This document shows, one piece after another, positions 3,832 to 20,181 of a DNA stretch of 64,000 bases. The DNA is from Methylophilaceae bacterium (GTDB lineage Bacteria > Pseudomonadota > Gammaproteobacteria > Burkholderiales > Methylophilaceae), in contig JAQWQF010000006.1 in assembly GCA_029244935.1 (NCBI GenBank), forward strand, positions 1 through 64,000, read 5' to 3'. Under the pieces are notes generated by a model that was not told the DNA's origin, searched no databases, and worked only from the letters and a program-made list of their open reading frames with translations. The position numbers and the translations under genes are program-made. Position 1 is the stretch's first letter, and each line of letters begins with the position of its first letter.

Positions 3832-5340
3832 TTACCGGTTAACCAGAATCTCCTGCCACTTTTTAACCCCTATCTCATGAATTGATTGACCATTCTTATC
3901 AACCGCAACTGTAACAGGCATATTTTCAACAACAAACTCATAAATTGCCTCCATCCCTAGCTCAGGAAATGCTACAACTTTAGCTGATTTAATAGCTTGA
4001 GAAACTAAAAAAGCTGACCCCCCTATCGCAATAAGGTATGTTGCTTCAAACTTTTGAATTGTTGCTACAGTTTCAGGGCCCCTTTCCGCTTTACCAATCA
4101 TACCAAGAACTCCATAATGATCTAACATTAACTTTGTGTAACAATCCATTCTTGATGCAGTTGTAGGACCCGCTGGGCCCACGACCTCATCTCCAACGGC
4201 GCCGACTGGGCCAACATAGTAAACAAAACGACCTTTAAGGTCTAAATCATCAGGTAGTTTCTCATTCAATTCTGCAATTTTTTTTAGCTTTTTATGTGCA
4301 GCATCTCTAGCGGTAAGAATTTTCCCAGATAATAGGAGGCTTTGTCCAACCGCCCACTTTGAAATATCTTCCTTAGTAATATCATTTAAATTTACTTTAG
4401 TAACACTCTCATTTGGCTTCCAAACTTCTTTGGGCCAAAGATCTAAATTTGGAGGGTAAAATTTAGCAGGTCCACTTCCATCTAAATTAAAATCGATATG
4501 TCTATTGGCTGCACAGTTTGGGATTATTGCAACAGGAAGAGAGGCTGCGTGAGTTGGATACTCTAATATTTTAACGTCTAATACTGTTGTTAGACCGCCC
4601 AATCCCTGTGCACCAATCCCAAGTTTATTAATTTTTTCATAGAGCTCAAGCCTTAACTCCTCTAACTTAGTACTTGGCCCCAAATCCTGTAACTGTTGAA
4701 TATCAATAGGACTCATTAATGATTCTTTAGCTAATAAAACTGCTTTATCAGCTGTTCCACCTACACCAATCCCAAGAACACCTGGTGGACACCAGCCTGC
4801 GCCCATTTTAGGAATAGTTTCAAGTATATGATCAACAAAATTATCAGATGGATTTAACATTTTTAAATGAGCTTTATTTTCTGAACCTCCCCCTTTTGCA
4901 GTAACAATTACCTGTAATGTCTCTCCCTTAACCAGACTTATATGAGTGATTGCAGGAGTATTATCTTTTGTATTTACTCTTCGACCTAGAGGATCTTCAA
5001 CAATTGAAGCACGAAGTGGATTTAAGACATCAAGGTACGCCCTCCTAACTCCTTCATTCACCATCTCTTCTAATGTTAATGATGATTCCCACTGGACATC
5101 CATCCCTTGTTTAACAAATACCGTTATAATACCGGTGTCCTGACAAAGTGGTCTTTTGCCATAAGCTGACAATTTTGAACTCGATAGGATTTGCAGGATA
5201 GCATCTTTAGCTGGTGCAGATTCCTCTAGCTCATATGCTCTTTTCATAGCTAATATAAAATCTTCTGAATGGTAATAAGAGATATATTGTAATGCTGTAG
5301 CTATTGACTCAATAAAATCACTTTTTTTAATTATATTCAT
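3832..5340 (-). CDS. fumA: Class I (iron-sulfur) fumarate hydratase
   Basis: Interconverts fumarate and malate with an oxygen-sensitive [4Fe-4S] cluster. Candidate cluster cysteines are seen in PLCQDTG, IPNCAANRH and SRMDCYTK. Family motifs GGGSENKAHL and GIGVGGTADKA are present, as is a C-terminal half of the fumarase beta-domain type (VGPVGAVGDEVVGPAGPTT). At 502 aa the alpha and beta parts are fused, as in FumA/FumB. Its ATG overlaps the stop of the acyl-CoA ligase by one base (TAATG). It is the last gene of the gntR-mae-sdh operon, where it would hydrate fumarate made by SDH from methylcitrate-cycle succinate. Confidence 0.95.
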   Translation of the reverse strand: MNIIKKSDFIESIATALQYISYYHSEDFILAMKRAYELEESAPAKDAILQILSSSKLSAYGKRPLCQDTGIITVFVKQGMDVQWESSLTLEEMVNEGVRRAYLDVLNPLRASIVEDPLGRRVNTKDNTPAITHISLVKGETLQVIVTAKGGGSENKAHLKMLNPSDNFVDHILETIPKMGAGWCPPGVLGIGVGGTADKAVLLAKESLMSPIDIQQLQDLGPSTKLEELRLELYEKINKLGIGAQGLGGLTTVLDVKILEYPTHAASLPVAIIPNCAANRHIDFNLDGSGPAKFYPPNLDLWPKEVWKPNESVTKVNLNDITKEDISKWAVGQSLLLSGKILTARDAAHKKLKKIAELNEKLPDDLDLKGRFVYYVGPVGAVGDEVVGPAGPTTASRMDCYTKLMLDHYGVLGMIGKAERGPETVATIQKFEATYLIAIGGSAFLVSQAIKSAKVVAFPELGMEAIYEFVVENMPVTVAVDKNGQSIHEIGVKKWQEILVNR

Positions 5341-18729: not shown

Positions 18730-20181
18730 ATGTCTAGTATGATGCAGTCGTATGATAAAGAAATCGAATCAATAGCAAACTATGTAGTAAATTTTAAAAT
18801 TGATAGTAATGAAGCTTTTAATACAGCTCGTAATTGTTTGATTGACACTCTAGGCTGTGGCCTTGAGGCCTTAGATTATCCAGCATGCATAAAACTTTTA
18901 GGACCAACGGTCCCGGGGACAATCGTACCAAATGGAACAAAAATACCTGGTACAGATTACCAATTAGACCCAATCAACGGCGCTTTTAATATTGGCGCTA
19001 TGAATCGTTGGTTAGATTTTAACGACACCTGGCTTGCCTCAGAATGGGGGCATCCATCGGATAATCTTGGCGGTATTCTAGCAACAGCTGACTGGCTGTC
19101 AAGAACCCGTATTAACGCTGGAAAAGATCCTCTATTGATGAAAGATGTCTTAGAAGCAATGATTAAGGCACACGAGATTCAGGGCGTAATAGCTCTTGAG
19201 AATAGCTTTAACCGAGTTGGTTTAGACCATGTAATGCTGGTAAAGATAGCTTCCACTGCAGTGATTACAAAAATGCTTGGTGGCTCAAAAAAAGATATAA
19301 TGAGCGCCCTTTCAAACGCCTGGATCGATGGGCAAAGCTTAAGGACTTATCGTCATTCGCCGAATACTGGCTCTAGAAAATCATGGGCTGCAGGCGATGC
19401 AACTAGTCGAGCTGTAAGACTTTCTCTAATGACGATGAAAGGTGAGATGGGTTACCCAACTGCTCTTAGTGCAAAAAAATGGGGTTTCTCTGATGTTTTA
19501 TTTAAAGGTAAAGCACTTAAATTTAAACAAGGGTATGGAAGTTATGTAATGGAGAATATATTATTTAAAATATCATTCCCAGCAGAATTTCATGCTCAGA
19601 CAGCAGTAGAGTCAGCTTTTCTTCTTCATACAGATAACATCTCTAAAATTGATAGCGAAGAAAAAATTAAGGATATCAAAGAAATTATTATCACCACTCA
19701 TGAGTCAGCAATCCGTATTATTGATAAAAAAGGCCCACTTAGCAATCCTGCTGATCGAGATCATTGCATTCAATATATGGTTGCTATTGGCTTACTAAAA
19801 GGTAGTCTTACCGCTAAAGATTATGAAGATAACGTAGCAAATGATCCAAGGATTGATTTATTGAGATCTAAAATGTTATGCAAGGAATCAAATCAGTACA
19901 GCAAAGATTATCTAAATCCGGACAAGAGATCAATAGCAAATGCAATTCAGATTTTTTATACAGATGGGACATTTTCTAAAGATATACAAGTTGAATACCC
20001 AATTGGGCATAAAAGACGTCGCGAAGAAGGTATTCCAAAATTAATAGAAAAATTTAAAACTAATCTAGCAAGGCAGTATGACACTGACAGAACTAAACAC
20101 ATTCTTAATATTAGTCTTGATCAGTCAAAGTTAGAAGCTTTGCCAGTAAATGAATATGTGGACTTATTTTGGAAAGGGTAA
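18730..20181 (+). CDS. prpD: 2-methylcitrate dehydratase (MmgE/PrpD family)
   Basis: Dehydrates 2-methylcitrate to 2-methyl-cis-aconitate. The diagnostic MNRWLDFNDTWLASEWGHPS and DNLGGILA segments near residue 95 match PrpD rather than generic MmgE. SFPAEFHAQTAVESA and HLHITTHESA-like regions (IIITTHESAIRII) follow. 483 aa is normal. Because this is PrpD and not AcnD/PrpF, rehydration to methylisocitrate needs an aconitase, which is not in this window. Last gene of the operon; it ends 3 bp from the convergent small gene. Confidence 0.94.
   Translation: MSSMMQSYDKEIESIANYVVNFKIDSNEAFNTARNCLIDTLGCGLEALDYPACIKLLGPTVPGTIVPNGTKIPGTDYQLDPINGAFNIGAMNRWLDFNDTWLASEWGHPSDNLGGILATADWLSRTRINAGKDPLLMKDVLEAMIKAHEIQGVIALENSFNRVGLDHVMLVKIASTAVITKMLGGSKKDIMSALSNAWIDGQSLRTYRHSPNTGSRKSWAAGDATSRAVRLSLMTMKGEMGYPTALSAKKWGFSDVLFKGKALKFKQGYGSYVMENILFKISFPAEFHAQTAVESAFLLHTDNISKIDSEEKIKDIKEIIITTHESAIRIIDKKGPLSNPADRDHCIQYMVAIGLLKGSLTAKDYEDNVANDPRIDLLRSKMLCKESNQYSKDYLNPDKRSIANAIQIFYTDGTFSKDIQVEYPIGHKRRREEGIPKLIEKFKTNLARQYDTDRTKHILNISLDQSKLEALPVNEYVDLFWKG

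What the first reader, a model, noticed from the sequence alone, without database searches (positions are those of the whole stretch)
3832..20181. Methylcitrate cycle, SDH branch and putative C5-dicarboxyl-CoA genes in one divergent locus
Seen: two back-to-back, tightly coupled operons hold prpBCD, sdhCDABE, class I fumarase, malic enzyme, a gntR, three CitE-like lyases, a MaoC-type hydratase and an acyl-CoA ligase. Known: prpBCD plus aconitase turn propionyl-CoA and oxaloacetate into pyruvate and succinate; mesaconyl-CoA hydratase with beta-methylmalyl-CoA lyase links mesaconyl-CoA to glyoxylate and propionyl-CoA; itaconyl-CoA hydratase with citramalyl-CoA lyase gives acetyl-CoA and pyruvate. 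Inference: the locus forms a closed route from a branched C5 dicarboxylate or its CoA ester through propionyl-CoA to pyruvate, with SDH, fumarase and malic enzyme recycling succinate. The prp-sdh linkage itself may be shared by Methylophilaceae; the C5 module is the part that looks undescribed.
Basis: partly seen in the sequence, partly recalled or inferred. Interest (0 to 1): 0.8.

Follow-up and report, generated by a model that had tools for sequence, protein, structure and literature searches.

The report
ICL-free acetate cycle in one locus
A 16-gene cluster in a small bacterium of the methanol-using family Methylophilaceae joins the methylcitrate cycle, succinate dehydrogenase and a five-gene CoA-ester module that recurs in distant bacteria lacking isocitrate lyase, and it would likely let the cell use acetyl-CoA without the usual glyoxylate bypass or a complete citric acid cycle.

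Summary
The genes are as described: two tight divergent operons, 3832-13513 (-) and 13757-20181 (+). The linkage is known: PMC4109929 lists this set (cyl1-3, maoC, "prpE") as the Methylophilaceae methylcitric acid cycle cluster, and PMC2147049 proposed a citramalate-type route for a like cluster in Arcobacter butzleri. New here: (1) citE3-ligase-citE1-maoC-citE2 is a separable module in beta- and gammaproteobacteria and Campylobacterota. (2) CitE2 and CitE3 keep the lyase signature; CitE1 has the malyl-CoA-thioesterase Glu. (3) Of 29 module genomes 0 have isocitrate lyase, 27 PrpB, 29 class I fumarase. (4) TCTTATATAAGA lies between the operons in 16 of 16 loci compared; its third window copy precedes acetyl-CoA synthetase. 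In relative G032 mqo and acsA sit inside the locus. Best reading (inferred): acetyl-CoA + pyruvate pass through citramalate, mesaconate and beta-methylmalyl-CoA to glyoxylate + propionyl-CoA; methylcitrate cycle, SDH, fumarase and malic enzyme close the cycle. Direction and substrates are untested; catabolism of an external C5 acid, or the reverse flow, stays possible.

The parts
3832..5340 (-). class I fumarase (Fumerase + Fumerase_C); proposed double role fumarase/mesaconase
   Evidence: Pfam 309.9 and 260.4 bits; mesaconase role inferred from PMC4682846 (passages)
5340..7010 (-). AMP-forming acyl-CoA ligase of the module; substrate unknown, proposed mesaconate (or citramalate)
   Evidence: Pfam AMP-binding; no PrpE model among the best 25 NCBIfam hits; fused to a CitE1 domain in four loci
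6986..8128 (-). CitE3, CitE-like lyase with complete catalytic signature EDREDD
   Evidence: PF03328; 30 of 30 aligned proteins EDREDD
8125..8514 (-). SdhE flavinator (start probably further downstream: the ORF overlaps sdhB by 140 bases)
   Evidence: PF03937 54.8 bits, residues 48-117
8375..9127 (-). SdhB
   Evidence: NF004616 366 bits over cut-off 228
9135..10886 (-). SdhA
   Evidence: TIGR01816 900.2 bits over cut-off 727.35
10887..11243 (-). SdhD
   Evidence: TIGR02968 over cut-off
11234..11641 (-). SdhC
   Evidence: TIGR02970 over cut-off
11608..12843 (-). malic enzyme, short form
   Evidence: Pfam malic and Malic_M
12803..13513 (-). GntR/UTRA regulator
   Evidence: Pfam GntR + UTRA
13550..13561 (.). 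operator-like palindrome TCTTATATAAGA, copy 1
13673..13684 (.). operator-like palindrome TCTTATATAAGA, copy 2
13757..14632 (+). CitE1, malyl-CoA-thioesterase-type CitE-like protein (Glu268 at the lid Asp position, Gly38 for a metal-shell Glu)
14625..15683 (+). MaoC-type mesaconyl-CoA (2-methylfumaryl-CoA) hydratase
   Evidence: PF19315 over cut-off; 4e3e and 8hgn; tree
15686..16681 (+). CitE2, CitE-like lyase of the 3qqw/3r4i type with complete catalytic signature
   Evidence: 497 bits to 3qqw; EDREDD in 32 of 34 aligned proteins, the other 2 truncated
16678..17565 (+). PrpB methylisocitrate lyase
   Evidence: NF008455 521.8 bits over cut-off
17569..18714 (+). PrpC methylcitrate synthase
   Evidence: NF009006 660.9 over cut-off
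18730..20181 (+). PrpD methylcitrate dehydratase
   Evidence: NF006943 851.2 and TIGR02330 834.4, both over cut-off
58463..58474 (.). third exact copy of the palindrome, 47 bases before the ATG at 58522 of acsA
58507..60495 (+). acetyl-CoA synthetase AcsA (ORF from TTG; likely ATG at 58522), proposed regulon member
   Evidence: TIGR02188 942.7 over 724.95; propionate-CoA ligase models below cut-off

Best explanation
The locus encodes a GntR-linked set of enzymes that together would most likely run an isocitrate-lyase-free acetyl-CoA cycle, in which a predicted citramalate/mesaconate route makes glyoxylate and propionyl-CoA and the methylcitrate cycle, succinate dehydrogenase, fumarase and malic enzyme carry the carbon on to pyruvate. 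Steps, all inferred unless marked: acetyl-CoA + pyruvate -> (S)-citramalyl-CoA (CitE3, or CitE2) -> citramalate + CoA (CitE1 as thioesterase, or another thioesterase) -> mesaconate (class I fumarase acting as mesaconase) -> mesaconyl-CoA (AMP-ligase) -> beta-methylmalyl-CoA (MaoC) -> glyoxylate + propionyl-CoA (CitE2, or CitE3). Propionyl-CoA + oxaloacetate -> pyruvate + succinate by PrpC, PrpD, an aconitase and PrpB (Prp identities shown by family models). Succinate -> malate by SDH and fumarase (identities shown). Glyoxylate + acetyl-CoA -> malyl-CoA -> malate by a CitE lyase plus CitE1. Malate -> pyruvate by malic enzyme, or -> oxaloacetate. Thioesterase plus ligase would move CoA from one carboxyl to the other, replacing the intramolecular CoA transferase of the 3-hydroxypropionate bicycle, of whose family (PF02515) no member was found in this genome. 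Shown: gene identities and order, conserved catalytic residues, recurrence of the module, co-occurrence counts, the shared palindrome. Not shown: any substrate, any flux, GntR binding.
For: Module recurrence: citE3, ligase, maoC and citE2 within about 12 kb in 29 of the 80 named loci kept by the scan, with citE1 separate in 25 and fused to the ligase in 4. Those 29 genomes: isocitrate lyase 0, PrpB over cut-off 27, class I fumarase 29, malate synthase 4; 11 hand-chosen genomes with MaoC but no module: 2, 1, 11 and 9. MaoC and the PrpB-type hit occur in the same 21 of 37 family genomes. Of 24 order-level relatives 16 have isocitrate lyase; 0 of 37 family members. OGDH E1: 0 of 37 family genomes. 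Lyase signature intact in CitE2 and CitE3, thioesterase-type in CitE1 (rule from PMC3832036). G018 and G019 keep gntR, malE and sdh but have no MaoC and no PrpB-type hit. Palindrome in 16 of 16 gntR-citE1 gaps compared; 22 of 22 exact copies in 1.34 Mb lie there. Third window copy precedes acsA. G032: mqo and acsA lie between the two halves, each half with its palindrome. Methylophaga: a PEP-synthase regulator and PEP synthase-type gene follow the ligase. PMC5120137: in an OM43 strain a CitE-like gene and the next CoA-ligase gene are highest on dissolved organic matter, with prpBCD also up.
Against: A. butzleri, with the like cluster, does not grow on acetate (PMC2147049). Citramalyl-CoA synthesis by known malyl-CoA lyases needs a large pyruvate excess (PMC3832036). 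The citramalate cycle itself is contested in R. rubrum (PMC8307300). No palindrome at 3 mismatches or fewer within 160 bases upstream of acsA in 5 of 8 MaoC-bearing same-genus genomes read. CitE1 in module lineages has lost metal-shell residues, and the four fusions a metal ligand, so it may not be an active thioesterase. RuMP methylotrophs growing on methanol do not need an acetate bypass (established knowledge). MaoC and prpB being neighbours, their joint absence from incomplete genomes is expected.
Confidence: 0.5

Rival explanations
1. Catabolism of an external branched C5 dicarboxylate (mesaconate, citramalate or similar): the ligase activates it, MaoC and a CitE lyase split it to glyoxylate and propionyl-CoA, and prp/sdh/malE oxidise that.
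For: MaoC is of the mesaconyl-CoA hydratase type; ligase and class I fumarase are in the operon; up-regulation on dissolved organic matter in an OM43 strain (PMC5120137).
Against: No dicarboxylate transporter among the 24 module-flanking proteins scanned by Pfam (an EamA protein and an ABC/FtsX pair are the only transport genes); the palindrome marks acsA. Flanks beyond those 24 were not scanned.
Confidence: 0.2
2. The reverse flow: glyoxylate + propionyl-CoA are condensed and turned into acetyl-CoA + pyruvate, as in the second half of the 3-hydroxypropionate bicycle, to rescue glyoxylate and propionyl-CoA.
For: Favoured for A. butzleri in PMC2147049; citramalyl-CoA cleavage is the easy direction (PMC3832036); malate synthase is absent from 25 of 29 module genomes.
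Against: PrpB, a competing propionyl-CoA sink, is in 27 of 29 module genomes and in the same operon here; the palindrome before acsA does not fit.
Confidence: 0.2
3. Plain propionate catabolism: the ligase or AcsA makes propionyl-CoA, prp/sdh/fum/malE oxidise it, and the CitE/MaoC genes are side functions.
For: Published label prpE and name methylcitric acid cycle cluster (PMC4109929); PrpBCD are genuine.
Against: No propionate-CoA ligase model is among the ligase's best 25 of 106 NCBIfam hits; the module recurs without prp beside it (Thiobacillus, Gallionella and Kangiella types) and the ligase is fused to a CitE1 domain in four loci.
Confidence: 0.1

Closest known systems
Methylcitric acid cycle cluster of Methylotenera/Methylophilus (PMC4109929, PMC3728764)
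   Same: Same gene set: prpCBD, cyl1, maoC, cyl2, gntR, mdh, sdhABCD, cyl3, prpE, fum; the window locus is another member of this cluster.
   Different: In the passages seen the cyl/maoC genes have no function assigned and the metabolite is called unknown; here the five genes are shown to be a separable module and are given roles.
Arcobacter butzleri ab1917-ab1921 (PMC2147049)
   Same: CitE, ligase-CitE fusion, MaoC-like, CitE, class I fumarase; proposed in 2007 to interconvert glyoxylate + propionyl-CoA with pyruvate + acetyl-CoA.
   Different: Not fused and joined to prp and sdh under a palindrome in the window; CitE1 now assigned to the thioesterase type. The A. butzleri sequences were not compared directly, only the layouts of the related loci L078 and L108.
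Citramalate cycle proposed for Rhodospirillum rubrum (PMC8307300)
   Same: Same intermediates: citramalate, mesaconate, mesaconyl-CoA, methylmalyl-CoA, glyoxylate + propionyl-CoA.
   Different: Propionyl-CoA goes through the methylcitrate cycle, not through a methylmalonyl-CoA mutase; no CoA transferase of family III found.
Second half of the 3-hydroxypropionate bicycle (Chloroflexus)
   Same: Mesaconyl-CoA hydratase and CitE-type lyases.
   Different: No member of the intramolecular CoA transferase's family found in the genome; thioesterase + fumarase + ligase proposed instead.
Itaconate degradation Rip/Ich-Ccl
   Same: A MaoC-type hydratase plus a CitE-type lyase on C5 CoA esters.
   Different: RipB and RipC models far below cut-off; double-length MaoC.

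Membership tests
Methylcitrate cycle | PrpB, PrpC, PrpD above curated cut-offs | tested here: met
   521.8, 660.9 and 851.2 bits
Methylcitrate cycle | an aconitase for methylisocitrate in the genome | tested here: inconclusive
   Two aconitase-family hits: C13 (859-aa frame, 122.6 bits) and C18:49124 (466-aa frame, 573.9 bits, by length probably LeuC); neither was classed further
Methylcitrate cycle | PrpE-type propionate-CoA ligase in the locus | tested here: not met
   Ligase reaches no NCBIfam cut-off shown; PrpE models are not among the best 25 of 106
Citramalate cycle | mesaconyl-CoA hydratase | tested here: met
   By sequence: PF19315 over cut-off, relatives 4e3e and 8hgn; activity not tested
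Citramalate cycle | lyases for beta-methylmalyl-CoA and citramalyl-CoA | tested here: inconclusive
   CitE2 and CitE3 keep EDREDD; substrates unknown
Citramalate cycle | mesaconase | tested here: inconclusive
   Class I fumarase in the operon and in 29 of 29 module genomes, one as fragments; activity not testable here
Citramalate cycle | propionyl-CoA carboxylase / methylmalonyl-CoA mutase branch | tested here: not met
   Mutase PF01642 absent from the own genome and from 36 of 37 family genomes; carboxylase not searched
3-hydroxypropionate bicycle, second half | mesaconyl-CoA C1-C4 CoA transferase (family III) | tested here: not met
   PF02515: 0 of 37 family genomes at E 1e-10
Malyl-CoA lyase (for CitE1) | lid Asp and metal-shell Glu-Asp | tested here: not met
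   GDREDE in the window: Glu at the lid position, Gly for the metal-shell Glu
Malyl-CoA thioesterase type (for CitE1) | Glu at the lid position, grouping with that clade | tested here: inconclusive
   Glu present; sister to alphaproteobacterial EDREDE proteins, relatives of which are in 3 of 120 listed rows named malyl-CoA thiolesterase; the R. sphaeroides enzyme itself was not in the tree; activity not tested
Itaconate degradation | RipB and RipC above cut-off | tested here: not met
   RipB 101.8 vs 340; RipC at most 124 vs 375
Glyoxylate bypass | isocitrate lyase | tested here: not met
   Only the PrpB-type hit of 48 bits in the own genome

The most novel reading that the evidence does not exclude
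The 16 genes with acsA (and mqo) form a complete acetyl-CoA oxidation and assimilation cycle that needs neither isocitrate lyase nor 2-oxoglutarate dehydrogenase: acetyl-CoA is carried through citramalate, mesaconate and methylcitrate, and pyruvate is regenerated by malic enzyme, so that bacteria classed as obligate methylotrophs because of a broken citric acid cycle in fact own a full, GntR-controlled substitute, whose core is shared with sulfur oxidisers, marine gammaproteobacteria and Campylobacterota.
Probability: 0.3. Interest if true: 0.82.

Novelty: new variant of a known kind. Interest (0 to 1): 0.6.

Why it matters
The role of the methylcitrate cluster in Methylotenera has been called unknown although it is highly expressed in situ (PMC3728764). 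Assigning its unexplained genes to an acetyl-CoA cycle, with two probable lyases, one thioesterase-type protein, a conserved palindrome and a possible regulon link to acetyl-CoA synthetase, makes two open questions testable with a handful of assays: what this cluster feeds on, and whether a citramalate-type cycle really operates. It would also weaken the use of a missing 2-oxoglutarate dehydrogenase as the mark of obligate methylotrophy.

Tried and rejected
Rfam scan of the window: nothing above gathering score. CitE3 structure prediction gave mean pLDDT 61.7 with 134 of 380 residues under 50, so no fold search was made. The idea that the AMP-ligase is PrpE was dropped (module recurrence). The idea that CitE1 with MaoC is the beta-methylmalyl-CoA lyase pair, my first reading, was dropped. 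An acsA fragment after prpD in L071 looked like a second acs linkage but follows an abrupt change of base composition, so the contig may be chimeric and it is not counted. The window-only chance test of the palindrome is weak: 3 matches against 0.87 expected at up to one mismatch, 4 of 100 shuffles reaching 3; the argument rests on the cross-locus counts. Names in the CitE1 search were mostly generic; malyl-CoA thiolesterase was seen in 3 of the 120 listed, one of them cut short in the listing. CitE3 homologues listed bear only generic names. Of 13 stretches fetched for acsA, 3 (G036, G032, G033) held none. Rows left out before counting: L053, L054, L070, L072 (contig ends cut the module), L064 (ligase + maoC only) and L118 (maoC + citE2 only) are not among the 29 module loci; 11 of the other named loci were chosen by hand as comparison genomes, the rest were not searched. 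One of those 11, G094, has a weaker three-piece isocitrate-lyase-family match (68, 39 and 36 bits) that I did not count as isocitrate lyase. The trees used chosen subsets: 25 of 59 CitE1, 13 of 34 CitE2 and 12 of 30 CitE3 rows; 28 of 29 module loci and 21 others.

Papers: PMC4109929, PMC2147049, PMC6794327, PMC8307300, PMC4682846, PMC12290011, PMC11978286 and PMC3832036 seen as passages; PMC3728764 passages and section 14; PMC5120137 passages and section 12; other hits only as search listings. Searches for prior description: in an open-licence library only; the 2011 genome comparison of Methylotenera, seen cited, was not looked up. Recalled, from no call: the neighbourhood of mcl2, mch and sdh in Rhodobacter.
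Full report
What is there. The window lies in contig C18 of a 1.25 Mb genome. Its genus contains G006, whose contig length (1,311,651) and gene place equal those of the record CP103437.1, Methylophilaceae bacterium LSUCC0665. 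Two divergent operons start from one 243-base gap at 13514-13756: leftwards gntR, malic enzyme, sdhCDAB, sdhE, CitE3, AMP-ligase, class I fumarase; rightwards CitE1, MaoC, CitE2, prpB, prpC, prpD. Genes overlap or almost touch. The genome has its own gltA-type citrate synthase (C9) besides prpC and a single SDH flavoprotein apart from a weaker homologue of 304 bits. No match was found for 2-oxoglutarate dehydrogenase E1 (E 1e-40), family III CoA transferase (E 1e-10), methylmalonyl-CoA mutase (E 1e-10) or true isocitrate lyase. The genome is 95% complete, so a single absence is not certain; the absences of the first, second and fourth hold in all 37 family genomes searched, that of the third in 36 of 37.

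Conservation. A strong MaoC relative is in 17 of 31 genomes of the genus (one of them partial), 4 of 6 other genomes of the family and 3 of 24 order relatives. The PrpB-type hit occurs in exactly the same 21 of 37 family genomes; as the genes are neighbours, part of this is expected from incomplete assemblies. The whole layout is kept in five family genomes read (G036, G015, G008, G020, G033) and split in two others: G034 by contig ends, G032 by inserted genes (there citE3, ligase and fum, if present, lie beyond the stretch read). Two fairly complete same-genus genomes (G018 92%, G019 96%) keep gntR, malE and sdh together, G019 also fum, but have no MaoC and no PrpB-type hit anywhere and none of prpC, prpD, citE1, citE2, citE3 or ligase in the 16 kb read. 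So the five CoA-ester genes appear to come and go with prp rather than with sdh.

A separable module. In 29 of the 80, citE3, ligase, maoC and citE2 lie within about 12 kb: Methylophilaceae, Methylophaga, Gallionella, Thiobacillus, Tepidiphilus, Kangiella, Pleionea, Aliikangiella, Thalassotalea, Arcobacter, Aliarcobacter and Sulfurospirillum by record title among them. CitE3 and ligase are same-strand neighbours in 28 of 29, CitE1 and MaoC in 25, CitE2 and MaoC in 21, ligase and CitE1 in 11. In four loci (L078, L085, L108, L109) the ligase ORF is 839-848 aa; the one scanned by Pfam, L085, has AMP-binding domains followed by an HpcH_HpaI domain, and the C-terminal parts of all four fall inside the CitE1 clade. 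The module has no prp or sdh beside it in the Thiobacillus, Gallionella, Kangiella and Campylobacterota types. The same five genes form one operon in order relative G050, away from its TCA and prp cluster.

Which CitE is a lyase. PMC3832036 (passages) states that the residues equivalent to Rhodobacter Glu44, Asp45, Arg76, Glu141, Asp168 and Asp299 are conserved in CitE-like enzymes, except that the clade of the malyl-CoA thioesterase has Glu for the lid Asp. I placed these six positions by the printed alignment to 4l9y for CitE1 and by motif for CitE2 and CitE3. Read in that order, CitE2 is EDREDD in 32 of 34 rows (2 truncated) and CitE3 in 30 of 30; CitE1 is GDREDE in 15 of the 18 rows of the window's type, the window among them (GAREDE in 2, GNREDE in 1), EEREDE in 3 of 3 Thiobacillus-type rows, QEREDE in 7 and HERENQ in 1 of 8 gamma rows, E-RE[K/T]D in the 4 fusions, and EDREDE in 26 of 26 alphaproteobacterial neighbours of MaoC. 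In a tree of chosen rows, module CitE1 proteins form one well supported clade, sister to the alphaproteobacterial ones and apart from the malyl-CoA lyase rows; the tree has long branches and gives no safe place to CitE2 and CitE3. So the locus holds two probable C-C lyases and one thioesterase-type protein whose metal site has partly decayed. Module MaoC proteins also form one well supported clade, with two rows outside the 29 (L064, L118) nested in it, beside the clade that holds 4E3E and 8HGN.

Genome company. In the 29 module genomes versus 11 hand-chosen MaoC genomes without module: true isocitrate lyase (two pieces of 149 bits or more each) 0 versus 2, with a third comparison genome, G094, showing a weaker family match; PrpB over cut-off 27 versus 1; class I fumarase 29 (one only as fragments at contig ends) versus 11; malate synthase 4 versus 9. 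In the relatives' set isocitrate lyase is in 16 of 24 order genomes and 0 of 37 family genomes; G050 with the five genes lacks it, G047 and G058, with maoC and citE2 but no citE3 or ligase in the stretch read, have it. Kinship confounds these counts, but a propionyl-CoA sink is nearly always present, which fits a module that makes propionyl-CoA.

Regulation. A perfect 12-base palindrome TCTTATATAAGA is in the gntR-citE1 gap in 16 of 16 loci compared; in the 1,339,899 bases of the 80 loci it occurs 22 times, each time in that gap or, in L070, before citE1 at a contig end. The 15 of 29 module loci that lack it show no gntR beside the module. It is also in 15 of the 20 loci L033-L052, among them gntR-sdh loci without the module (G043, G052, G057, G031), so it belongs to an older GntR-SDH unit. 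In the window there are two copies in the gap and one, 58463-58474, 47 bases before the likely ATG of acsA, which is acetate- not propionate-type (942.7 bits over 724.95; PrpE 523.3 under 827.4). Of ten same-genus relatives whose acsA was read, three MaoC-bearing ones (G015, G020, G027) have a spaced version TCTTATATATGATATATAAGA (in G015 its complement) before acsA, the only three matches at up to one mismatch in 260 kb; five MaoC-bearing and two module-less ones have no match of fewer than 3 mismatches. In G032 the two halves of the locus are separated by mqo (741.2 bits), acsA (962.4 bits), a panD-type gene and two unnamed ORFs, and each half has its palindrome. In Methylophaga L056 the ligase is followed on the same strand by a PEP-synthase-regulator-type and a PEP synthase-type gene (L060 by matching lengths only).

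Mechanism. The steps are given under Best explanation. The point of the thioesterase-type protein, fumarase and ligase would be to take CoA off one carboxyl of the C5 acid and put it on the other, which the 3-hydroxypropionate bicycle does with a CoA transferase (established knowledge). With malic enzyme and an oxaloacetate-forming step such as Mqo the cycle closes on acetyl-CoA and oxaloacetate; every enzyme gene of the two operons then has a role. The A. butzleri paper put forward the same C5 chemistry in 2007 for a like cluster, preferring the opposite direction, and reported no growth on acetate. Expression data from others fit joint induction: in an OM43 strain a CitE-like gene and the CoA-ligase gene numbered next to it rise from 269 and 341 to 1,055 and 1,045 transcripts per 1,000 cells between replete methanol and dissolved organic matter, with prpBCD also raised; in Methylotenera the cluster is high in situ and opposite to the RuMP genes. 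That those two OM43 genes are CitE3 and ligase is inferred from name and order.

Verdict. Direction and substrates remain inference.

Noticed in passing
window 55942-58336 (-): A GacA/NarL-like response regulator and a UhpB/NarQ-like sensor kinase (both below cut-off) lie divergently beside acsA; might be a second control of acetate use.
   Followed up: partly
window 20612-22840 (-): TonB-dependent receptor of the heme/hemoglobin- or copper-like type (below all cut-offs shown) convergent with prpD; not beside prpD in the three same-genus relatives whose flank was read (G015, G008, G020).
   Followed up: partly
L074 10001-11035: A genome record named Candidatus Methylopumilus universalis carries the cluster although PMC6794327 reports the methylcitric acid pathway absent from all Ca. 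Methylopumilus strains; 1.6 Mb, so perhaps misnamed.
   Followed up: no
L114 5775-6809 and L115 6936-7970: Pelagibacteraceae carry a mesaconyl-CoA hydratase-type MaoC just before sdhAB (one small ORF between), without a CitE1 call.
   Followed up: no
L078 5156-5887 and L085 5291-6010: IclR-family regulators stand divergently beside the module in Arcobacter and Sulfurospirillum.
   Followed up: partly
L075 4527-5027; L081 3987-4847: A 4HBT-type thioesterase ORF abuts citE2 in a Kangiella-type locus and a TesB-type thioesterase lies beside citE2 in Pleionea, as if a thioesterase step belonged to the pathway.
   Followed up: partly
L126, L107, L128 around MaoC: In Chromatiaceae and other gammaproteobacteria the MaoC stands near two other CitE-like genes that group, with weak support, near malyl-CoA lyases; possibly a different C5 pathway.
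   Followed up: no
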